Assembly: GCA_016789955.1 (NCBI GenBank)
Contig: JAEUPB010000016.1
Location: 1-64,000, forward strand
DNA length: 64,000 nucleotides
Reading direction: 5' to 3'
Source of the DNA: Rubrivivax sp.
Lineage (GTDB): Bacteria; Pseudomonadota; Gammaproteobacteria; Burkholderiales; Burkholderiaceae_C
Of this stretch, positions 31,161 to 42,225 are shown piece after piece. Each line of letters begins with the position of its first letter. Positions within the stretch are counted from its first letter, which is position 1. The notes beneath the pieces are model-generated. The model was not told the origin of the DNA. It ran no database searches and worked only from the letters and a program-made list of their open reading frames with translations. A program made the translations under genes and the position numbers.

Positions 31161-31853
31161 ATGATCGAAGTTTATTCCTGGGCCACGCCGAACGGCCACA
31201 AGGTCCACATCATGCTGGAGGAGTGCGGCCTGCCGTACCGCGTGCATGCGGTGGACATCGGCACCGGCGCGCAGTTCGAGCCGTCATTCCTGGCGATCAG
31301 CCCCAACAACAAGATCCCGGCCATCGTCGACCCCGACGGCCCCGACGGGCAGCCGATCAGCCTGTTCGAGTCGGGCGCGATCCTGATGTACCTGGCGTCG
31401 AAGGCCGGCCGCTTCCTGCCGCAGGACCTGCGCGGGCGCTGGAAGACGCTCGAATGGCTGATGTTCCAGATGGGCGGCGTGGGCCCGATGCTGGGCCAGG
31501 CCCATCACTTCCGCATCTACGCGCCCGAGAAGATCCCCTACGCGATCGAGCGCTACAGCAACGAGGCCAAGCGGCTGTACGGCGTGATGAACCGCCAGCT
31601 GGCCAACAGCCGCTACATCGCCGGCCCCGAGTACACGATCGCCGACATGGCCATCTTCCCCTGGCTGCGCTCGTGGAAGAACCAGGGCATCGACTGGAAC
31701 GACCACCCGCACCTGAAGGGCTGGTTCGACGAGATCGCCGCGCGGCCCGCCGTGCAGCGCGGCGTGGAGGTGCTGGCTGCGCAGCGCAGGCCCGTCACCG
31801 ACGACAAGGCCCGCGAAGTGCTGTTCGGCAAGACGCAGTACGAGCGCCGCTGA
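31161..31853 (+). CDS. Glutathione S-transferase (Nu class, YfcG/YghU type)
   Basis: A 230-residue GST. The thioredoxin-like N-terminal domain starts MIEVYSWATPNGHKVHIMLE, with the Nu-class Thr/Asn pair TPNG, the cis-proline NNKIPAIVDPD and the glutathione-binding SLFESGAILMYLA. The helical C-terminal domain includes YTIADMAIFPWLRSWKNQGID. Nu-class enzymes have disulfide-bond reductase activity. The 5' side is divergent from the hypothetical gene; tRNA-Arg follows by 51 nt. Confidence 0.9.
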   Translation: MIEVYSWATPNGHKVHIMLEECGLPYRVHAVDIGTGAQFEPSFLAISPNNKIPAIVDPDGPDGQPISLFESGAILMYLASKAGRFLPQDLRGRWKTLEWLMFQMGGVGPMLGQAHHFRIYAPEKIPYAIERYSNEAKRLYGVMNRQLANSRYIAGPEYTIADMAIFPWLRSWKNQGIDWNDHPHLKGWFDEIAARPAVQRGVEVLAAQRRPVTDDKAREVLFGKTQYERR

Positions 31854-31904
31854 CGCAGCCCCCGGCAAGCGCCTAACATGCCGGCCGTGCCGGCTTCCCG
31901 TCAT

Positions 31905-31981
31905 CTGCCCGTAGCTCAACCGGATAGAGCAGCTGCCTTCTAAGCAGCAGGTCGGGGGTTCGAGTCCCTCCGGGCAGGCCA
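31905..31981 (+). tRNA. tRNA-Arg (anticodon UCU)
   Basis: A 77-nt cloverleaf. The acceptor stem CTGCCCG pairs fully with CGGGCAG. The D stem is GCTC/GAGC. The anticodon stem GCTGC/GCAGC carries loop CTTCTAA with anticodon TCT. The variable loop is AGGTC, and the T arm GGGGG-TTCGAGT-CCCTC has one G-T pair. The discriminator is G, with CCA encoded. It reads AGA codons, which are rare in this GC-rich genome. Confidence 0.96.
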
Positions 31982-32309
31982 TCCGAACGGCCCGGAGGGC
32001 TCCGTGGCCGTCTTGCGCCATGCCGTTGCAGCGATGGTGCCACGGTCGCTCCGCAGCATGGCTCCCGTCACTCCACGGGAGAGCACCTTGCTGATTCGCC
32101 TGACCCTGACCGGCACACTCGTTGCCTGCACGCTCCGGGGCCCGCCCGCGGACTCAGCACCGTGACGCTCGAGCGCATCCACGTCGACCGCGGCGTGCGG
32201 CTGTCGTTCGCCGCCGGGCGCGCGCGGCGGCCGACCGAGGGCTGCACCGGGTGGCCTGCGCCCGGGGCATGGGTAGCATCGCCGGGTCGGGGGAGCAACA
32301 ACGGACACC
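31982..32309. other. Non-coding gap between tRNA-Arg and the hybrid kinase
   Basis: This 328-bp stretch shows no convincing gene. It contains one clean hairpin, CTCCCGT (32062-32068) with ACGGGAG (32075-32081) around a 6-nt loop, possibly a terminator or attenuator, though without a T run. The remainder has base use like degenerate coding sequence, but no frame has recognisable content. GGGGGAG near 32289 could be part of the kinase RBS region. Confidence 0.5.
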
Positions 32310-34049
32310 ATGCAGGGCAGCAACGTGCGCCAGCGCATCGGGGAGTGGATGGGTGCGGCCGTCCGGCCCCCGGTCGACCGTTCGCGCGTGCTGCGCGAGC
32401 AGACCGACCTGCTGATCCGCCAGATGCGCACCGGCTTCCTGGTGGCCACGATCGCCGGCGCCCTGCTGGGCGTGCCGATGGTGCGCACGAGCGGCCCGGT
32501 CGTCTACCTGGCTTGGCTGGCGCTGCTGGTCGGCGGTTATGCGCTGCGGCAGCGGCTGATGGAACAGGCGCAGGCGAGCGGCTCGCTGGACCGGGTGTTC
32601 GTCATCACGCTGGTCGGCTCGGCGCTGATCGGCTTCATCCTCACGCTGCCCTGCCCGTTGTTCTTCCCGAACGCCGACCCGAACACGCGCGCCTTCCTGA
32701 CCATGGTGCACATGATCTGGATGGCTGCCGCGGTGTCCGTGCTGGGCGTCTTCCCGCCGAGCTACAAGGTCTATCTCGCCTGCTCGCTGGGCAACGTCGT
32801 GCTCGGCTGGTGGCTCTCGGCCACGCCGCTGGAAGCGGGCCTGGTCACCGCGTGGTCGGTGCCGATGGCCTTCCTGCTCACGCGACTGTCGGGTCGGGTC
32901 GGCCGCATGATCGAGGAGTCGGTCAACATCCGCCACGAGCGCGAGCAGCTGGTGGCGCGGCTGCAGGAGTCGCTCGCCGAGACCGAGGCCGCGCAGCGCG
33001 CCCGCTCGCGGTTCCTCGCGTCGGCCAGCCATGATCTGCTGCAGCCGGTGCATGCGCTGCTGCTGCTGGCGAGCCTGTCGCGCGACCTGCCCGAAGGCCC
33101 ACGCCGCGAAGACGTGCTCAAGCAGTTGCACGTCACGGCCGAGTCGATCGACGCGATGTTCCGCGGCCTGCTCGACCTCGCGCGCTTCGATGCCGGCACG
33201 ATGCAGCCGCAGCTCACCGCGATGCCGGTCGCGCACGTGCTGCGCGCCGTCCAGGCCGCCTACCAGGGCCGCTGCGCCGACAAGGGCGTGCTGCTGACCG
33301 TGGAGACGCCGCCGGGCGTGCACGTGCACGCCGACCCGGCGATGTTCGACCGCATCGTGCGCAACCTCGTCGACAACGCCTGCAAGTTCACGCCGCGCGG
33401 CGAGATCGTGGTGCGGTGCCGGCAGGAGGGCGCCAGCGTGGTCGTGGAGGTGCAGGACAGCGGCGTGGGCATCGCGGCCGAGGACCTGGCCCACGTGCAG
33501 GAGGCGTTCTACCGCGGCGGCTCGGCGCGCGAGGTGGAAGCCGATGGCGTCGGGCTGGGACTTGCCAACAGCACGCAGATGGCGCTGCTGCTGCACGGCG
33601 ACGTGGCGATCTCCTCCGAGCACGGCAAGGGCACGACGGTGCGGCTGACGCTGCCGGCGGCCGAGAACCCCGCCGCGGTCACCCACGCCGCGCCGCGTGA
33701 ACTGCGCTACCGCCGCGTGGTGCTGGTCGAGGACGATCGCAACGCGCGCGTGGCCACCGAGCTGTGGCTGCAGCAGCGCGGCGTGGCGGTGGCCGCCGCC
33801 GCCGACCTGACCGGGGCGCTGGCGCAGGTCGACGCGCAGGGCTGGACTCCGGACTTCCTGCTGTGCGACTACCACCTCGGCAAGGAAGCCAACGGCGTGC
33901 AGGTGATCTCGGCCCTGCGCGGCCGCTACGGCGCCCTGCCGGCGGCCATCGTCAGCGGCGAAAACCTCACCGCTGCCGACGTGCCGGCCGACGTGACGCT
34001 GCTGGCCAAGCCGCTGCGCCCGGAGCGCCTCGAGCAGTTGCTCGCGTAG
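32310..34049 (+). CDS. Hybrid sensor histidine kinase/response regulator
   Basis: A 579-residue membrane kinase. Six predicted helices occupy about residues 43-194, with no sizeable periplasmic sensor domain. The dimerisation helix carries phospho-His241 in FLASASHDLLQPVHALLLLA. The ATPase domain shows RNLVDNACKFTPRG (N box), DSGVGIAAEDL and DGVGLGLANS. A C-terminal receiver (about 450-579) has VEDDRNARVA and phosphoacceptor Asp520 in LLCDYHLGKEANGV, and ends with LAKPLRP. The LuxR-type response regulator at 16240 is a possible output partner. The stimulus is not evident. Confidence 0.92.
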   Translation: MQGSNVRQRIGEWMGAAVRPPVDRSRVLREQTDLLIRQMRTGFLVATIAGALLGVPMVRTSGPVVYLAWLALLVGGYALRQRLMEQAQASGSLDRVFVITLVGSALIGFILTLPCPLFFPNADPNTRAFLTMVHMIWMAAAVSVLGVFPPSYKVYLACSLGNVVLGWWLSATPLEAGLVTAWSVPMAFLLTRLSGRVGRMIEESVNIRHEREQLVARLQESLAETEAAQRARSRFLASASHDLLQPVHALLLLASLSRDLPEGPRREDVLKQLHVTAESIDAMFRGLLDLARFDAGTMQPQLTAMPVAHVLRAVQAAYQGRCADKGVLLTVETPPGVHVHADPAMFDRIVRNLVDNACKFTPRGEIVVRCRQEGASVVVEVQDSGVGIAAEDLAHVQEAFYRGGSAREVEADGVGLGLANSTQMALLLHGDVAISSEHGKGTTVRLTLPAAENPAAVTHAAPRELRYRRVVLVEDDRNARVATELWLQQRGVAVAAAADLTGALAQVDAQGWTPDFLLCDYHLGKEANGVQVISALRGRYGALPAAIVSGENLTAADVPADVTLLAKPLRPERLEQLLA

Positions 34050-34064
34050 GCGCCGACCGTCTCG

Positions 34065-37000
34065 ATGCCGACGGCTCCGCACCGCCTGGCCACACCGCTG
34101 GAGGCGTGGCCGGCCGATCGGCAGCACGTCGACACCCTCGTCATCGGCTCAGGCTACGGCGGCGCCGTGGCCGCGCTGCGTCTGGCCCGCGCCGGGCGCG
34201 AGGTGCTGGTCATCGAGCGCGGCAGCGAATTCGCGCCCGGCGACTTCCCCGACGACGTGGCGCAGCTGCCGAAGTTCCTGCGCGCGCCGGCGCTGCACGG
34301 GCGCGGCGTCACCGGCAGCGCGCACGGCCTGTTCGACTGGCATGTCGGCGGCGCGGTGCTGTCGCTCACCGCGAACGGCCTCGGCGGCGGCAGCCTGATC
34401 AACGCCGGCGTGGCGATCGAGCCCGATGCCGACGTGCTGCAGCAGCCATGCTGGCCCGCGCCGCTGCGCAGCGGCACCGATGTCGGCAAGCACTCCATGG
34501 CGCGCGCGTTCCGGCGCGCCCGCCGCACGCTGGGCGCGCGCACCTGGCACGACGAGGAGCCGCTGCCGAAGAGCCGTGCCCTCGAGCGCCTGGCGCCGCA
34601 CCTGCGCCGCGGCGCGCGGGCCCGGGCGGTGCGCGTGACGATCGACGGCCGCGCCTGCACGCGCTGCGGCGACTGCGCCACCGGCTGCAACGTGCCCGGC
34701 GCCAAGCTCACACTGCGCGAGACCTACCTCACCGGTGCGGTGCGCCGCGGTGCGCAGCTGGTCACCGGCGGCAGTGCCTACCTCGTCACCCCGCCGGGCC
34801 CGGGCGCCGCCTTCGGCGACGATCGCTGGCAGGTCTGGGTCGTGCCGACCGGCCGGCTGGCGTCGCTGGACACGCAGGCGAGCGTGCTCGCCTGCGAGCA
34901 CGGCCGCCGCTTCACGGCGCAGCGACTGATCATCGCCGCCGGCACCTTCGGCAGTGCCGAGCTGCTGCAGCGCAGCCGCGAGCACCACGGCGCGGCGTTC
35001 CCGCTGTCACCGGCGCTGGGCAAGCGCTACTCCGGCAACGGTGATTCGCTCAGCTTCGTCGTCGGCAATCCTCAGCCGGTGCACGCCGAAGGCCGGGCCC
35101 ATCACCAGGGACCGCCGGTGGGGCCGACGATCACCCGCATCGTCGACCTGCGCCGCGAGACGCACGGCCGCCGCAAGGGCCGGCCGCTGGCGATGGCCGA
35201 GCGGCTGGTGGTGGAGGACGGCGCCACGCCTCTGGCGCTGCAGCGCTTCACGCGCGAAATGCTGGCCACGTCGTTCACGCTCGCGGAGAGCGAGCAGTTT
35301 GGAATGCGCCGGCTCGTGTCCGCGGCGGGGCTGGACCTGCTGTCGTCGGCGGCGATGGCTCGCCACACCCAGGTGCTGCTGACGATGGGCCACGACGGCT
35401 CGGCCGGCCACCTCGTGCGCCTCGGGGACCGCGACACGACGGTGCCCTACTGGCCCGGCCCGCTCGAGACGCTGCCCACGTATCGCCGCCAGGCGCGGAT
35501 GTTCCAACGTGCCGAACGCGGTGGCGGCGTGCACCTGGACGCGCCCAGCTGGCAGCTGATGCCGCCGGCGGCCGAGCGGCTGATGTCCGGCCCCAAGGCC
35601 ACCCGCAGCCAGCTCACGGTGCATCCGCTGGGCGGGTGCGTGATGGCCGACCGCTACGAGGACGGCGTGGTCGACCACCGCGGCCGCGCCTGGCGCTCGC
35701 CGGGGCAGCCGTGGCGGGGCCTGTACGTGCTCGACGGCTCGATCGTGCCGACATCGCTGGGTGTGAACCCGTTGCTGACGATCACCGCGCTCGCCGAGCG
35801 GGCGATGACGTTCCTGCTCGAAGAAGCCGAAGAGGGCTCCGCCAGCCCCGGGCATGACACAGACGAGGCCGCAACCCCACCGCCCCGCGCGGCGCGCCCA
35901 GCCCCCTCGCCGGCCGAGGCCGTCCGCGCCGCCGAAGCTGCACGGCCCTCCGCGGCCAACGTCGACGGCGAGTTCGATGTCTCGCTGTTCGAGCGCCTCG
36001 TCTGTGCCGCCGACCAGCTGCGCGGCCCGCGCCGGGGCGCCGACGAGCCCGGCACCGCGGCCGAACTGCGGCTGGAGATGGGCTCGGCCCACTGGCTGCA
36101 CGTGTGGGACGACCCGCGCCACCGCGTCGAGCTGCGCCGCGGCCGGCTGCGGCTGCAGGCCCCGTCAGAGAAACGCGACGGCTCGCCCACGACACTCGAC
36201 TACGACGTGCAGGACGGCTGGTTCGAACTGCTGCCGGCGGCCGACCATGTGCCCTTCGAGCGCGGGTCGCGGCGCCGCAGCTGGATCGTCACCGTGCTGC
36301 TGGTGCTGTGGCTGTTCACGTGGCACCTGAACGTGTTCGTCACGTGGTGGGTGCAACGCGGTCGCGACGACCTGTTGCGCAGCCGCCGCGACGACCAGAT
36401 GCCGGCCGGGCTGCGCGGCGCGTTCGACTACGGCCGCTCGCTGGTGGCCGGGCTGATGCAGGCCGCCGAACGCCGCACGATGCGCTACCGGCTGAGGCTC
36501 GTGCGCCGGGGCACGGGAGATGCCCCGCAGAACCTGCTGTTGCTGGGCACCAAGCCCATCGGTTACGGCGCCACCTGGACGCAGCTCGCACGGTGGTGGT
36601 GGCGCCACCGTGCCGATGCGGGGAGCGGGCGCGGCGTGCCGCCACCGCGGCCCACGTTCTGGTCGCAGGTCACCGATCCACGCATCGTGCTGCTGACCGG
36701 CACGTCGGCCGGGCCGCTGCGCACCTGGGTGGCCGAGCGCTGGCCGCGCCTGGCCGGCGCCTGGGCCTGGGGGCGCTTCGAGGTCGACGGCGCCGAACTG
36801 GTGTCGCAGGCCCCGCTGCTGCTGAACCGCGGCGACCTCACCGGCGGCATGGTGGCCCAGGCCGCCTACCCGCTGCACTTCCTGCGCTACGCGCTGAAGA
36901 CACACCTGTTCGAGCTGCGCCTGCCCGACTACAGCGGCAGCGCGCCGCTGGATGCCTGCGATCCGCCCGAGGCGATCCGCGGGCCCGACGGCAAGCCCCT

Positions 37001-40000
37001 CGTGCCGGAGGTGCACGAACTCGTGGTGCCCCGCGGGCGCAGCGAGGGCGAAGACCCGCTGGTCGTGCTGCCCACCCGGCTGACGCTGCGCCTGTGGTGC
37101 TACCGGGGCGCCTCGGAAGACCCGGCGGGCGCCGTCACGCCCGGCCGCTGGCAGCAACACCCGGTCTGGCGCGCGCGCAGCGTGCTGCTGCTGCATGCCT
37201 TCGGGCAATCGGGCGGCATGTACACACTGCCGGAGCTGCAGCCCAACCTCGCCGAGGTGCTGGTGGCCGCAGGCTACGACGTGTGGGTGCTCGAGCACCG
37301 CATCAGCACGCGGCTGCCGTACACGATCTTCCCGAGCACCATCGACCAGATCGCCCGCCGCGACATCCCCGCAGCCGTGCAGCACATCCTGCAGGACCTG
37401 CGCGGCCCGGCTCGCGGTGCAGCGCGCCACGTGCCCGCCGACGCGCCGCTGCAGATCCTCGCCTTCGCGCAGTGCATCGGCGGCGCGGCGCTGGCGATGT
37501 CGCTGCTGGACGGCCGGCTGTCGTACCCGCAGGCCGCCGGCCGCAACGGCGAGCTTCCGGTGCAGCTGCCGATGCTCGCCGGCGCGGTCATCTCCCAGAC
37601 GCATCCGTTCCTGGTGGGCAGCGCGATCACGCGGGCCAAGACCTGGCTGCCCGGGCTGCTGCGCAACCTGCTCGACGGCGGCGCCGTGCCACTGGCCGTG
37701 CGCGGGCCGGTGGAGACGCTGCCCGAGGCCTGGGTGGACCGGCTGCTGGCCAGCCTGCCTGTGCCCGCCAGCGAGCACTGCCCGCACGAGCGTGACCTGC
37801 GCACGCGGCAGGACGCCTGCGCCACCTGCCGCCGCATCCGCTTCATCGAAGCGCCGCTGTTCAAGCACGCGAACCTCAGCAGCCCGGTACACGAGGCCCT
37901 GCCGAGACTCTTCGGTGCCGCGAACCTGCAGCTCTTCGCGCACGCCGCGTTGTGCGTCGAACACGAGCGGCTGGTCGACAACGACGGGCGGCCGGTCTAC
38001 GTGCACGACGAGCGCATGCGGCGCCACTTCGGTCTGCCGCTGGCCTTCCTGCATGGTGCGCAGAACGAGTTGTTCGACGTGGCGAGCGCCCGCCGCAGCG
38101 CTGCCGAGTACGCGCGCCTGTTCCCCGGCCTCGCCCGGCAGGTGGGCGAGGCCCTGGGGCAGCCCGAAGGCGGCGCGGCCTGGATCGTCGACGGGCTCGC
38201 GCATGTCGACGTCGTCATCGGGCGCGACGCGCCGGCGCGGGTCTTCCAGCCGCTGGCGCGGTGGTTCGACCGGTTGCTCGAACACGCCCACCAGGATGCC
38301 GCCGCGCCCGCGCTGCGCACGGTGCTCACCGCACGGCCGCCGCGGGCAGGCCCGTGGATCGGGCACGTGCAGCCTGCGCCGGGCCCAGCCGAACAGAACG
38401 GCGGGGAGCGGCGGTGGCAGGTGCGCATCGCCTTCCTCGTCGACGACCGCTACTCCGAGGGCAAGCAGGGAGCGGACGGCCCACCGGGCACGCGCACCTG
38501 GGCCTGGGTGCGCGTGCGCACGCGCGGCGGCGCCACAGCGCCGGCCCAGGTGCTGCCGCTGGCCATCGTGCCGTACCAGCAGCAACCGGGCGGGCGTCTG
38601 CCGCGCACCGCGGGCTACCGCATCGCTCATGGCACGGTGGACGTGGCCGTGCCTGATGGCACCCTGGCGCACGATCTGCGTGGATACACGGTGCACGAGG
38701 CGCTGGTGGCCGAAGGCGCCAACCGACCGCCCGAGTACCTGCTCGCCGAGCCGGTTGCGGCAGGTGATGCACCGGCCGGGGCCGGCACGGCCGAAGGCAG
38801 CCTGGCGCTGCTGGTGGCCCGGGCCCGCGACGCCTGCCGACAGGCTCGCCGCGCCGAACGGCTGGCGCGCGGACACGCCTCTGCGCAGCGACTCGAAGCC
38901 CGAGAGCGGGTTGCGGCGCGCGCGCGGCTGTCACGGCAGACCCTTGCGGCGTTGGCCCGGGCAGCCGACGGTGCACCCGGTGACGACATCACCTTCGCCG
39001 CTGCGAGCTGCCGCTACCCCGGCATGGCCATCGACGGCCATCGCGTCGATGCGTCGGTGCGCGAACTGCTCGCCTGGTCGCGCGGCGCGGCCTCGGCGCC
39101 CGCGCCGGTGCCGGCCTTCGCGGTGCTGCTGGGCGACCAGATCTACGCCGACGCCACGGCCGGCGTGGTCGATTCCGACAATCCGCTGGACCGTTACGCG
39201 CCGCGCTACGCCACGGCGCTGGCACATGGCCGGCGCCACCCGCTCGGCGGCCGCCGCGTGGCCTTCGGTGACCTGCTCGCCACGCTGCCCGTTTACCTGA
39301 CGCAGGACGATCACGAGTACCGCGACGGCTGGCCCGGCAGCGGCCCCATCGAGGCCGGGCGCGCGCAGGGTCGAACGCGCGAAAGGCGCATCGTTCAGCT
39401 GGCCGACGCCGCGGCCACCGCCTTCCAGCGCCTGCACATGCCGGCGACGTGGCCCGGCGCGACGAGCTATGCGTTCCGCCATGGCCCGCTGCGCTGCTTC
39501 GTGCTGGACACGCGCAGCCACCGACAGGTGTCGCCGCAACGCATCGTGCATCCCGACGACTGGGAGCGCCTGCGCGCCTGGCTGGCCGATCCCGAGGCGG
39601 CGACGCACCTCAATTGCATCGCCACCGGCAGCGTGATGCTGCCGCGCCTGCAGCCCGGCTGCAATCCGGCCGACCCCGGCGAGGACACGATGGCCTGGTG
39701 CGAGCCCGATCGCCGCGAGCTGCTGCGCCTGCTCGGCGCAGCCGCCGGCGCCCCGCAGCCGCGCCGCTTCCTGCTGCTGTCGGGCGACTACCACCTGAGC
39801 GTGGCGCTGCGGGTGCACGTGCAGGGCCAGGCCCGCGGCGCGGCGATCGTGGCGCCCCCCCTCTACGCGCCCCTGGCCTACGCGAACATCCCGCTCGGCG
39901 CGCTGGACCTCGACGAAGACCTGCACACGCTCGGCCTGCGCCTGGAAGCACTCGACCGCCGCGACGGCAGCGGCTTCGACACGCTGCAGGTGAGCCGGCG

Positions 40001-40103
40001 CGAGGGCGGCTTCCGGATCACGCTCGTGCAGTGGCTGCACGACCACGCCGCCGGAGCCGCCGCAGCGCTGCGCACGAGCCCGCTGGAGATCGTTCTCGAC
40101 TGA
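34065..40103 (+). CDS. Giant fusion: GMC oxidoreductase + membrane helix + alpha/beta hydrolase + PhoD-like phosphoesterase
   Basis: One 2012-residue frame. (1) Residues 1-590: GMC flavoenzyme, cholesterol-oxidase-like, with FAD motif GSGYGG (28-33), a cysteine cluster CTRCGDCATGC (198-208), and the active-site pair His520 in HPLGGC and Asn568 in SLGVNPLLT. (2) A Pro/Ala linker (about 595-640), an unassigned segment, then a membrane helix (about 741-763). (3) A region to about 1030 typical of GMC-hydrolase fusions. (4) An alpha/beta hydrolase (about 1035-1470) with LLLHAFGQSGG, nucleophile elbow FAQCIGG (Cys1137 in place of Ser), probable acid near Asn1334/Glu1335, His1380 and a Cys/His cluster (1239-1255). 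(5) A PhoD-like domain (about 1640-2012) with ligands Cys1649, Asp1691, Tyr1694, Asp1749, Asp1908 and His1910. No signal peptide is seen. It follows the hybrid kinase by 15 nt. The reaction is unknown; a sterol- or lipid-like substrate is inference. Confidence 0.88.
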   Translation: MPTAPHRLATPLEAWPADRQHVDTLVIGSGYGGAVAALRLARAGREVLVIERGSEFAPGDFPDDVAQLPKFLRAPALHGRGVTGSAHGLFDWHVGGAVLSLTANGLGGGSLINAGVAIEPDADVLQQPCWPAPLRSGTDVGKHSMARAFRRARRTLGARTWHDEEPLPKSRALERLAPHLRRGARARAVRVTIDGRACTRCGDCATGCNVPGAKLTLRETYLTGAVRRGAQLVTGGSAYLVTPPGPGAAFGDDRWQVWVVPTGRLASLDTQASVLACEHGRRFTAQRLIIAAGTFGSAELLQRSREHHGAAFPLSPALGKRYSGNGDSLSFVVGNPQPVHAEGRAHHQGPPVGPTITRIVDLRRETHGRRKGRPLAMAERLVVEDGATPLALQRFTREMLATSFTLAESEQFGMRRLVSAAGLDLLSSAAMARHTQVLLTMGHDGSAGHLVRLGDRDTTVPYWPGPLETLPTYRRQARMFQRAERGGGVHLDAPSWQLMPPAAERLMSGPKATRSQLTVHPLGGCVMADRYEDGVVDHRGRAWRSPGQPWRGLYVLDGSIVPTSLGVNPLLTITALAERAMTFLLEEAEEGSASPGHDTDEAATPPPRAARPAPSPAEAVRAAEAARPSAANVDGEFDVSLFERLVCAADQLRGPRRGADEPGTAAELRLEMGSAHWLHVWDDPRHRVELRRGRLRLQAPSEKRDGSPTTLDYDVQDGWFELLPAADHVPFERGSRRRSWIVTVLLVLWLFTWHLNVFVTWWVQRGRDDLLRSRRDDQMPAGLRGAFDYGRSLVAGLMQAAERRTMRYRLRLVRRGTGDAPQNLLLLGTKPIGYGATWTQLARWWWRHRADAGSGRGVPPPRPTFWSQVTDPRIVLLTGTSAGPLRTWVAERWPRLAGAWAWGRFEVDGAELVSQAPLLLNRGDLTGGMVAQAAYPLHFLRYALKTHLFELRLPDYSGSAPLDACDPPEAIRGPDGKPLVPEVHELVVPRGRSEGEDPLVVLPTRLTLRLWCYRGASEDPAGAVTPGRWQQHPVWRARSVLLLHAFGQSGGMYTLPELQPNLAEVLVAAGYDVWVLEHRISTRLPYTIFPSTIDQIARRDIPAAVQHILQDLRGPARGAARHVPADAPLQILAFAQCIGGAALAMSLLDGRLSYPQAAGRNGELPVQLPMLAGAVISQTHPFLVGSAITRAKTWLPGLLRNLLDGGAVPLAVRGPVETLPEAWVDRLLASLPVPASEHCPHERDLRTRQDACATCRRIRFIEAPLFKHANLSSPVHEALPRLFGAANLQLFAHAALCVEHERLVDNDGRPVYVHDERMRRHFGLPLAFLHGAQNELFDVASARRSAAEYARLFPGLARQVGEALGQPEGGAAWIVDGLAHVDVVIGRDAPARVFQPLARWFDRLLEHAHQDAAAPALRTVLTARPPRAGPWIGHVQPAPGPAEQNGGERRWQVRIAFLVDDRYSEGKQGADGPPGTRTWAWVRVRTRGGATAPAQVLPLAIVPYQQQPGGRLPRTAGYRIAHGTVDVAVPDGTLAHDLRGYTVHEALVAEGANRPPEYLLAEPVAAGDAPAGAGTAEGSLALLVARARDACRQARRAERLARGHASAQRLEARERVAARARLSRQTLAALARAADGAPGDDITFAAASCRYPGMAIDGHRVDASVRELLAWSRGAASAPAPVPAFAVLLGDQIYADATAGVVDSDNPLDRYAPRYATALAHGRRHPLGGRRVAFGDLLATLPVYLTQDDHEYRDGWPGSGPIEAGRAQGRTRERRIVQLADAAATAFQRLHMPATWPGATSYAFRHGPLRCFVLDTRSHRQVSPQRIVHPDDWERLRAWLADPEAATHLNCIATGSVMLPRLQPGCNPADPGEDTMAWCEPDRRELLRLLGAAAGAPQPRRFLLLSGDYHLSVALRVHVQGQARGAAIVAPPLYAPLAYANIPLGALDLDEDLHTLGLRLEALDRRDGSGFDTLQVSRREGGFRITLVQWLHDHAAGAAAALRTSPLEIVLD

Positions 40104-40155
40104 CCGCGCCGGCTGCATCGCAAGGCGACCCGGCCGGGCTTCCTAGAATCGGGGC

Positions 40156-42225
40156 ATGCCCCGCAAGCTTTTCGTCACCACCGCGCTCCCCTACGCCAAC
40201 GCCCCGTTCCACATCGGCCACATGATGGAGTACATCCAGGCCGACATCTGGGTGCGGCTGCAGCGCATGCTGGGGCACGAGGTGCATTTCGTCTGCGCCG
40301 ACGACGCCCACGGCGCGCCGATCATGATCGCCGCCGAGAAGGCGGGCAAGACGCCGCAGCAGTTCGTGGCCGAGCTGGCCGCCGGCCGCAAGCCCTTCCT
40401 CGACGGCTTCCACATCGCCTTCGACAACTGGCACAGCACCGACGCGCCCGAGAACCGCGAGCTGGTCACGTCCATCTACCTCGCGCTCCAGCGCGCCGGG
40501 CTGATCGAGACGCGCACGATCGAGCAGTTCTACGACCCCGACAAGGGCATGTTCCTGCCCGACCGGTTCATCAAGGGCGAGTGCCCGAAGTGCGGGGCGA
40601 AGGACCAGTACGGCGACAACTGCGAGGTCTGCGGCTCGGTCTACGCTCCCACCGACCTGAAGAACCCGTACTCCGCGCTGTCAGGCGCCACGCCGGTGCT
40701 ACGCACCAGCGACCACTACTTCTTCCGCTTGTCGGACCCGCGTTGCGTCGAGTTCCTGGAGTCATGGACGCAGGACGGCCGGCTGCAGCCCGAGGTGGCC
40801 AACAAGGTGCGCGAGTGGTTCACGCGCGACGAAGCCGGCCGCGTCGGCCTGAGCGACTGGGACATCAGCCGCGACCCGCCGTACTTCGGCTTCGAGATCC
40901 CCGATGCGCCGGGCAAGTACTTCTACGTCTGGCTCGACGCACCGGTGGGCTACCTGGCCTCGCTGAAGAACCGCCTGGGGAAGATCGGCATCGATTTCGA
41001 GCGCTACCTCGCCGATCCGGAGGTCGAGCAGATCCACTTCATCGGCAAGGACATCGTCACTTTCCACACGCTGTTCTGGCCCGCGATCCTGAAGTTCAGT
41101 GGGCGCAAGACGCCGGACCGCGTCTACGTGCACGGCCACCTGACCGTGAACAACGAGAAGATGAGCAAGAGCCGCGGCACCGGCATCAGCCCGCTGCGCT
41201 ACCTCGAGATCGGCATGAACGCCGAGTGGCTGCGCTACTACATCGCGGCCAAGCTCAACGCCCGCGTCGAGGACCTCGACTTCAACCCCGACGACTTCAT
41301 GGCGCGCGTCAACGCCGACCTCGTCGGCAAGTACGTGAACATCGCCAGCCGCGCCGCCGGCTTCATCAGCAAGCGCTTCGAGGGGCGCCTGTCGGGTGAC
41401 GTGGGCGTGGAAGGCCGCGCGCTGCTCGACGGGCTGCGCGCCCATGCGGAGACGGTGCGCGAGCTGTACGACACGCGCGAGTTCGGCAAGGCCCTGCGCG
41501 AGGTGATGCTGCTGGCCGATCGCGTCAACGGGTACGTCGACGCGCACAAGCCGTGGGAGCTGGCGAAGCAGCCCGGCATGGAGGGCGCGCTGCACGACGC
41601 CTGCACGGTGTGCATCGAGGCCTTCCGCATCCTCACGGTCTACCTCAAGCCGGTGCTGCCGGTGCTGGCGGAGCGCGTGGAGCAGTTCCTCGGCATCGAG
41701 CCGCTGCGCTGGGCCGATGCACAGCGCTCCATCCTGCATGGCGCCGGCCACCGCATCCGCGACTACCGCCACCTGATGCAGCGCGTGGAAGGCAAGCACC
41801 TGGAGGCCCTGTTCGAGCCGCCGGCGGCACCCGCCGAAGCTGCCCCTGCCGCGCCCGCGCCGCCCGGCGGCGAGGCGATCGCCCCCACCATCGCGATCGA
41901 CGATTTCGCCAAGATCGACCTGCGCCTCGCGCGCATCGTCGAGGCCCGGGCCGTGGAAGGCAGCACCAAGCTGCTGCAACTCACGCTGGATGCCGGCGAG
42001 GGGCGCTTGCGCAACGTGTTCAGCGGCATCGCCAGCGCCTACCAGCCCGAGCAGCTGGCCGGCAAGCTCACGGTGCTGGTGGCCAACCTGGCGCCGCGCA
42101 AGATGAAGTTCGGTGTCAGCGAGGGCATGGTGCTGGCCGCCAGCCACGCCGACGAGAAGGCACACCCGGGTCTCCACGTGCTGGAGCCGTGGCCGGGCGC
42201 CGTGCCCGGGCTGCGCGTGCGCTGA
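40156..42225 (+). CDS. metG: Methionyl-tRNA synthetase
   Basis: A 689-residue class I aminoacyl-tRNA synthetase charging tRNA-Met. The HIGH motif is at residues 19-22. The zinc-knuckle cysteines are C143, C146, C156 and C159, and the KMSKS loop is in [15 protein letters not shown] (about 335). The C-terminal OB-fold tRNA-binding module (about 580-689) begins [14 protein letters not shown], linked by an Ala/Pro stretch. Length is that of the E. coli-type dimeric enzyme. Confidence 0.97.

What the first reader, a model, noticed from the sequence alone, without database searches (positions are those of the whole stretch)
34065..40103. Three-enzyme fusion: GMC oxidase, alpha/beta hydrolase and PhoD-like phosphoesterase in one 2012-residue membrane protein
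All three modules keep their key residues: FAD motif 28-33 with His520/Asn568; hydrolase elbow with Cys1137 and His1380; phosphoesterase ligands C1649, D1691, Y1694, D1749, D1908, H1910. GMC-hydrolase fusions resembling the N-terminal two thirds are known to me as a family pattern, but I do not know of a described one with a C-terminal PhoD domain. Together the modules suggest stepwise processing of one lipid-like molecule (oxidise, hydrolyse ester, remove phosphate). The membrane helix near 741-763 splits the polypeptide, so topology decides whether all parts share a compartment.
Basis: partly seen in the sequence, partly recalled or inferred. Interest (0 to 1): 0.82.

Follow-up and report, generated by a model that had tools for sequence, protein, structure and literature searches.

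The report
Three-enzyme fusion protein, recurrent but undescribed
One very long bacterial gene makes a protein that joins an alcohol-oxidising enzyme, a fat-splitting-type enzyme and a phosphate-ester-cutting enzyme; the same trio recurs in other bacteria, sometimes as two neighbouring genes, and usually sits beside signalling genes, so it looks like a real but uncharacterised, signal-linked lipid-processing machine.

Summary
It is neither an artefact nor unique: I found 25 single-ORF proteins with all three modules (window included) and 6 loci where they are two adjacent genes, all found in Pseudomonadota. It is rare: 7 of 399 genomes in an order sample have it in one frame.

Additions: (1) four invariant cysteines in the GMC module (31 of 31) contain the 3Fe-4S ligand spacing of FAD glucose dehydrogenase, suggesting an Fe-S dehydrogenase rather than an H2O2-making oxidase; (2) the hydrolase resembles acid lipases but has an invariant Cys nucleophile; (3) PhoD ligands are kept in 29 of 31; (4) the membrane helix is not a family feature; (5) a kinase gene of one type lies near the gene at 13 of 13 betaproteobacterial-type loci, with a LuxR-type regulator at 11; a cyclase-AAA gene at 12 of 14 Rhizobiales genome loci.

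My literature searches listed no paper on the architecture. Most likely a multi-step lipid-processing enzyme; substrate unknown. No structure could be predicted.

The parts
34065..40103 (+). three-module ORF, 2012 aa
34065..35834 (+). GMC (cholesterol-oxidase-like) module, about residues 1-590
   Evidence: Pfam GMC_oxred_N and GMC_oxred_C; family profile against cholesterol oxidase structures, E 1.9e-43
34656..34688 (+). four-Cys motif C198-x2-C201-x2-C204-x3-C208, predicted Fe-S ligands
   Evidence: 31 of 31 rows keep all four; spacing of C198, C204 and C208 equals that of the 3Fe-4S ligands Cys212, Cys218 and Cys222 given in PMC6719666. Against: Pfam 4Fe-4S models match only below cut-off
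36285..36353 (+). hydrophobic stretch, residues 741-763; not conserved in relatives
35835..37004 (+). middle region of unknown fold, about residues 591-980
   Evidence: no Pfam hit in the window; aligned
37005..38354 (+). alpha/beta hydrolase module, about residues 981-1430; Cys1137, Asn1334, His1380
38355..38981 (+). linker between hydrolase and PhoD core, about residues 1431-1639
38982..39989 (+). PhoD-like phosphoesterase core; ligands C1649, D1691, Y1694, D1749, D1908, H1910
   Evidence: Pfam PhoD; profile against 2yeq, E 1.4e-21
32310..34049 (+). hybrid histidine kinase with receiver domain, ends 15 bp before the ORF; probable co-transcribed partner
   Evidence: Pfam; 69% identical neighbour in the Rubrivivax relative; similar kinases by tblastn at 13 of 13 betaproteobacterial-type loci, window included

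Best explanation
The gene encodes a single-chain, probably cytoplasmic or peripheral multi-enzyme for a lipid or lipid-like alcohol ester. The PhoD module (Fe3+/Ca2+ site) would cut a phosphoester or phosphodiester (head group). The acid-lipase-like Cys-His hydrolase would remove or transfer an acyl group. The GMC module would oxidise the freed alcohol with FAD and pass the electrons through an Fe-S cluster to an acceptor rather than to O2. Expression or activity is tied to a neighbouring sensor (hybrid kinase, usually with a LuxR-type regulator, or an adenylate cyclase-AAA protein). Shown: the ORF, the modules, the residue conservation, the recurrence as fused or adjacent genes, and the linked regulators. 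Inferred: the cofactors, the substrate class, the order of steps, the compartment and the regulation.
For: All three modules recur together: 25 single ORFs and 6 adjacent-gene pairs. Active-site residues: the four Cys, H520, N568, C1137 and H1380 in 31 of 31; all six PhoD ligands in 29 of 31. GMC: cholesterol oxidase structures E 1.9e-43, with Cys loop spacing as in the 3Fe-4S glucose dehydrogenase. Hydrolase: gastric lipase E 4e-15, lysosomal acid lipase/cholesteryl ester hydrolase 4.6e-10. PhoD: B. subtilis PhoD 2yeq E 1.4e-21. The PhoD family includes phosphodiesterases and a phospholipase D (PMC4223295, passages). Regulators. The two members with a damaged PhoD site (L031, L033) are also the two Rhizobiales genome loci without the cyclase neighbour.
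Against: No substrate, structure or expression data. Pfam 4Fe-4S models match the Cys loop only below cut-off (14.0 against 25.5 and 11.2 against 24.5 bits). The Cys nucleophile and Asn at the usual acid position (29 of 31) are unusual for an ester hydrolase. PhoD homologues are typically exported, whereas I see no export signal here, the FAD motif starting at residue 28 (by eye; no predictor was available). Two relatives have lost PhoD ligands while keeping the rest. The window and L012 lack an adjacent LuxR-type regulator. Gene company shows association, not a shared substrate.
Confidence: 0.45

Rival explanations
1. A cholesterol/steroid-ester oxidase: the ester is hydrolysed by the acid-lipase-like module and the 3-hydroxyl is oxidised with O2; PhoD is an accessory part.
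For: GMC module nearest to cholesterol oxidase structures with the His/Asn pair conserved; hydrolase nearest to acid lipases including cholesteryl ester hydrolase.
Against: NCBIfam cholesterol oxidase model scores 147.4 against a cut-off of 850; four-Cys loop absent from the aligned cholesterol oxidase structure; no steroid genes were recognised among the neighbours given to Pfam, which were few.
Confidence: 0.2
2. The hydrolase module is a Cys acyltransferase or polyester enzyme (PHA-synthase/depolymerase-like), so the protein builds or remodels a storage or signal lipid rather than degrading one.
For: Invariant Cys nucleophile (31 of 31); 3 of 26 rows match the class III PHA synthase model at E down to 5.7e-06 and 2 of 26 the class I model; PHA synthase and PHB depolymerase structures among weak hits; a two-module relative lies about 6 kb from a phaE gene.
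Against: Best structural matches are lipases; the PHA model hits are few and weak, and the window itself hits none.
Confidence: 0.2
3. The modules only share regulation or physical scaffolding and act on different substrates.
For: PhoD ligands lost in two relatives that keep the rest; two-module GMC-hydrolase proteins exist without a PhoD module.
Against: Fusion or tight adjacency in distant lineages; PhoD ligands kept in 29 of 31.
Confidence: 0.15
4. Frameshift or assembly artefact joining separate genes.
For: Some relatives are two genes.
Against: Uniform coding signal; 24 other single-ORF examples, including on complete plasmids.
Confidence: 0.01

Closest known systems
GMC oxidoreductases, cholesterol oxidase (class I) branch
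   Same: FAD motif, HPLGG and NP motifs, His/Asn pair; E 1.9e-43 by profile
   Different: four-Cys loop absent from the aligned cholesterol oxidase structure; fused to two more modules; score far below the NCBIfam cholesterol oxidase cut-off
FAD glucose dehydrogenase alpha subunit (B. cepacia; 3Fe-4S)
   Same: GMC fold with a Cys loop of the same C-x5-C-x3-C spacing (paper passages)
   Different: weaker overall similarity (E 1.8e-17 by profile); an extra Cys between the ligands; no hitchhiker subunit was looked for
Acid lipases (gastric lipase, lysosomal acid lipase/cholesteryl ester hydrolase)
   Same: profile match around the nucleophile
   Different: Cys instead of Ser nucleophile (Ser recalled), Asn at the usual acid position
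PhoD alkaline phosphatase/phosphodiesterase; S. chromofuscus phospholipase D
   Same: Cys, Tyr, Asp and His ligand residues
   Different: C-terminal part of a large chain, no export signal seen; Asp aligned with an Asn of 2yeq, which I take to be the Ca2+ ligand that the paper says is sometimes Asp
Two-module GMC-alpha/beta hydrolase proteins (stop-to-stop 1141-1284 aa here)
   Same: first two thirds, four Cys and active-site residues
   Different: no PhoD module; the Azospirillum example has an annotated metallophosphoesterase gene just upstream, which matches Pfam Metallophos slightly below cut-off

Membership tests
GMC oxidoreductase superfamily | Pfam GMC_oxred_N and GMC_oxred_C above cut-off | tested here: met
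   45.3 and 50.2 bits against 23 and 24.6
GMC oxidoreductase superfamily | GxGxGG FAD motif and His/Asn catalytic pair | tested here: met
   GSGYGG 28-33, H520, N568
Cholesterol oxidase (NF058674 equivalog) | score above curated cut-off | tested here: not met
   147.4 against 850
Cholesterol oxidase (NF058674 equivalog) | oxidation of 3-beta-hydroxysterols with O2 | not testable with these tools
   needs an assay
Fe-S GMC dehydrogenase (FAD-GDH type) | Cys loop with 3Fe-4S ligand spacing | tested here: met
   C198/C204/C208 against Cys212/Cys218/Cys222
Fe-S GMC dehydrogenase (FAD-GDH type) | bound cluster; gamma (hitchhiker) and cytochrome subunits | not tested
   cluster needs EPR; subunits were not searched for
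alpha/beta hydrolase superfamily | nucleophile elbow and His | tested here: met
   C1137 and H1380 in 31 of 31
alpha/beta hydrolase superfamily | Pfam model hit in the window protein | tested here: not met
   no hit in the window; Abhydrolase_1 at E<=0.001 in 23 of the 26 rows of A2
alpha/beta hydrolase superfamily | acidic third triad residue | tested here: inconclusive
   usual position is Asn1334 in 29 of 31; no structure available to locate another acid
PhoD (PF09423) | Pfam score above cut-off | tested here: met
   42.9 against 27 bits
PhoD (PF09423) | Fe3+/Ca2+ ligand residues | tested here: met
   all six listed residues in the window; 29 of 31 rows
PhoD (PF09423) | export by Tat signal peptide (typical) | tested here: inconclusive
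   the N-terminus carries the GMC module; no signal seen by eye, no predictor available

The most novel reading that the evidence does not exclude
A signal-controlled, single-chain enzyme line in which a lipid is beheaded by a PhoD phosphodiesterase, deacylated by a Cys lipase and oxidised by an Fe-S flavo-dehydrogenase: a new lipid-processing or lipid-signalling system of Burkholderiales and Rhizobiales.
Probability: 0.25. Interest if true: 0.72.

Novelty: new variant of a known kind. Interest (0 to 1): 0.5.

Why it matters
It would give an uncharacterised, conserved 2000-residue enzyme, annotated in one relative merely as 'alpha/beta fold hydrolase', a testable role, with three activities that can be assayed separately, natural split versions as tools, and a linked sensor that could reveal the inducing signal. 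It also points to a GMC branch with a probable Fe-S cluster beside cholesterol oxidase.

Tried and rejected
Frameshift artefact: rejected by recurrence and coding signal. Unique architecture: rejected (same calls). Transmembrane helix as a family feature: rejected. Of 25 single-ORF proteins, 12 have no 19-residue stretch at or above 1.6 in the middle region. Of the 12 others besides the window, 10 have theirs nearer the hydrolase, in a different-looking segment (judged by eye), and L022 and L097 have one elsewhere in the region. A Cys group of the hydrolase from C1239 onwards as a zinc site: none of these cysteines is among the columns kept in at least 90% of 26 rows. PhoB-box control: no match with up to 3 mismatches in the window, where chance gives about 2 (E. 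coli consensus recalled, typed as a pattern). Promoters and terminators: nothing above chance in 31900-40300.

One origin of the fusion: a GMC tree with 26 rows put all its three-module and split rows in one clade (96/92). A larger one with 33 rows did not resolve it, and the one-clade tree was not rejected (p-AU 0.32). A PhoD tree with 37 rows gave the same answer (p-AU 0.22). I claim neither one nor several origins. Before I dropped six near copies (L008, L015, L016, L025, L031, L034); one search also used only part of the fetched PhoD rows. Searches were earlier trees, the first without an outgroup.

A first genome-contig scan with the whole protein matched 67 stretches, none a relative; the second, with the PhoD alignment, gave 23 loci. 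PMC13066512 (passages) held only gene-table rows. (listings) gave nothing on the architecture.

So no fold search was made.
Full report
1. Observation. The ORF 34065-40103 (+) is open over 2012 codons, with third-position GC of 0.85-0.94 throughout. Pfam places GMC_oxred_N/C and PhoD above their cut-offs. The gene occurs once in the held assembly, which is 79.6% complete. The assembly has 4 further GMC_oxred_N places, one of them just at the cut-off, and an ordinary, much stronger PhoD match on another contig (316 bits).

2. Is it more than one organism's oddity? tblastn in plasmid records gave 40 records. Module-by-module comparison of the loci fetched from it showed single ORFs with all three modules in Ensifer plasmids, one annotated as 'alpha/beta fold hydrolase'. 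A scan of genome contigs with a PhoD-region alignment gave 23 loci: 12 with all three modules in one ORF of 1906-2095 aa stop to stop, 5 with a GMC-hydrolase ORF directly followed by a PhoD ORF, 5 with PhoD and no GMC or hydrolase match in the stretch, and 1 cut by the contig end. The nearest is a 2027-aa protein in a Rubrivivax MAG, 48-63% identical by module; a contig of the same length with the same match values lies in a genome of the window's own genus. Among 37 genomes of that genus (own included), 5 have a PhoD match in a frame of more than 1,800 aa, and the 4 others than the window were confirmed to hold GMC, hydrolase and PhoD matches. In a sample of 399 genomes of the order, 7 (own included) have it in one frame and 1 as two overlapping frames, and 1 more is cut by a contig end. 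So it is rare but recurrent. The scans were seeded with PhoD sequences of this type, so other types would be missed.

3. Active sites. Over 25 single-ORF proteins and 6 split pairs: the four Cys, H520, N568, C1137, H1380 and D1382 are in 31 of 31; Asn1334 in 29 of 31; all six PhoD ligands in 29 of 31, the exceptions being L031 and L033 from Ensifer/Sinorhizobium. The FAD glycines G28, G30 and G32 are in 30 of 31; L026 lacks that part because its contig starts inside the ORF. L005 and L011 are near copies, so the rows are not all independent.

4. The GMC module. A family profile matches cholesterol oxidase structures at E 1.9e-43; where the family has CtrCGdCatGCN the aligned crystal sequence has no cysteines. 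The glucose dehydrogenase paper (PMC6719666, passages) gives its 3Fe-4S ligands as Cys212, Cys218 and Cys222, spacing C-x5-C-x3-C; C198, C204 and C208 have that spacing, and C201 is an extra candidate. Two of three stand-alone GMC outgroup proteins also keep four cysteines. Pfam's 4Fe-4S models match only below cut-off. I infer an Fe-S flavo-dehydrogenase.

5. The hydrolase. The window's own module has no Pfam hit, but 23 of the 26 rows of A2 hit Abhydrolase_1, and the profile's best structures are gastric lipase and lysosomal acid lipase. The class III PHA synthase model matches 3 of 26 rows weakly. The invariant Cys nucleophile leaves acyl transfer open.

6. The PhoD module. The profile matches B. 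subtilis PhoD, E 1.4e-21. The crystal paper (PMC4223295, passages) describes an Fe3+ and two Ca2+ ions, a Cys-ligand subfamily to which this module would belong, and occasional Asp for an Asn Ca2+ ligand; an Asp aligns with an Asn there. The same paper names PhoD as a phosphodiesterase and S. chromofuscus phospholipase D as a family member.

7. Membrane. The 741-763 stretch has no counterpart in the Rubrivivax protein, and 12 of 25 single-ORF proteins have no strongly hydrophobic stretch in the middle region at all. I treat the protein as probably cytoplasmic or peripheral; single members may still touch the membrane.

8. Neighbours. In the window a hybrid histidine kinase-receiver gene ends 15 bp before the ORF, and metG starts 52 bp after it. 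A kinase of this type lies within the fetched stretch at 13 of 13 betaproteobacterial-type loci (window, L012, L027, L038-L040, L095-L101), by tblastn at E<=1e-10. Pfam confirmed kinase plus receiver in the 6 that I scanned: window, L012's contig (as L037), L095, L096, L097 and L101. At L027 and L100 it is on the other strand. A LuxR-type response regulator lies there at 11 of 13; it is missing beside the window gene (nearest match about 17 kb away) and at L012 (where a contig end is near). In Rhizobiales genome loci a cyclase-AAA protein is beside the gene in 12 of 14, and in 4 of 4 plasmid loci; the two without it are L031 and L033, the ones with damaged PhoD ligands. L026 could not be judged. 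Controls: of 55 other fetched loci, 2 had the kinase, 0 the LuxR-type regulator and 1 the cyclase; only 19 of these controls are 10 kb or longer, and all three hits lie among those 19.

9. Origin. Trees do not settle one or several fusions. The split Mesorhizobium pairs are nested beside a fused Bradyrhizobium protein (L022), so fission or re-fusion has occurred within that branch.

10. Literature. Searches with GMC oxidoreductase, PhoD and hydrolase (2 papers), GMC oxidoreductase, alpha beta hydrolase and fused, a six-term set (46 papers of which 10 were listed) and cholesterol oxidase with PhoD (5 papers) showed no description of the architecture in the titles and starts of abstracts listed; these papers were not read. 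The library is open-access only, so this is not proof of absence.

Verdict: a genuine, conserved, apparently undescribed domain architecture made of known families; function inferred only.

Noticed in passing
32310-34049 (+): Hybrid histidine kinase-response regulator directly upstream, 69% identical to the neighbour of the Rubrivivax relative; probably one transcript with the fusion.
   Followed up: yes
L031 and L033, PhoD part: Ensifer/Sinorhizobium members whose PhoD module lost D1691 and H1750 equivalents and which also lack the neighbouring cyclase gene.
   Followed up: partly
L042 (G020:C195), 2-1399: Contig-edge PhoD of the fused type with several ligand residues changed.
   Followed up: no
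L009 8734-9930 and 9716-14722: Ensifer canadensis plasmid copy lies in two overlapping frames within the GMC module.
   Followed up: no
L002 4125-5939: Azospirillum plasmid: a separate annotated metallophosphoesterase gene directly upstream of a two-module GMC-hydrolase gene.
   Followed up: partly
L035 637-3692: Pseudonocardia plasmid: related GMC and hydrolase as two divergent neighbouring genes.
   Followed up: no
L007 1-9464: Rhizobium two-module gene about 6 kb from a PHA synthase subunit PhaE gene and close to a CoA-transferase gene.
   Followed up: no
40156-42225 (+): Methionyl-tRNA synthetase gene starts 52 bp after the fusion gene.
   Followed up: no
31161-31853 (+) and 31905-31981 (+): Glutathione S-transferase gene and a tRNA-Arg (tct) upstream of the kinase.
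   Followed up: no
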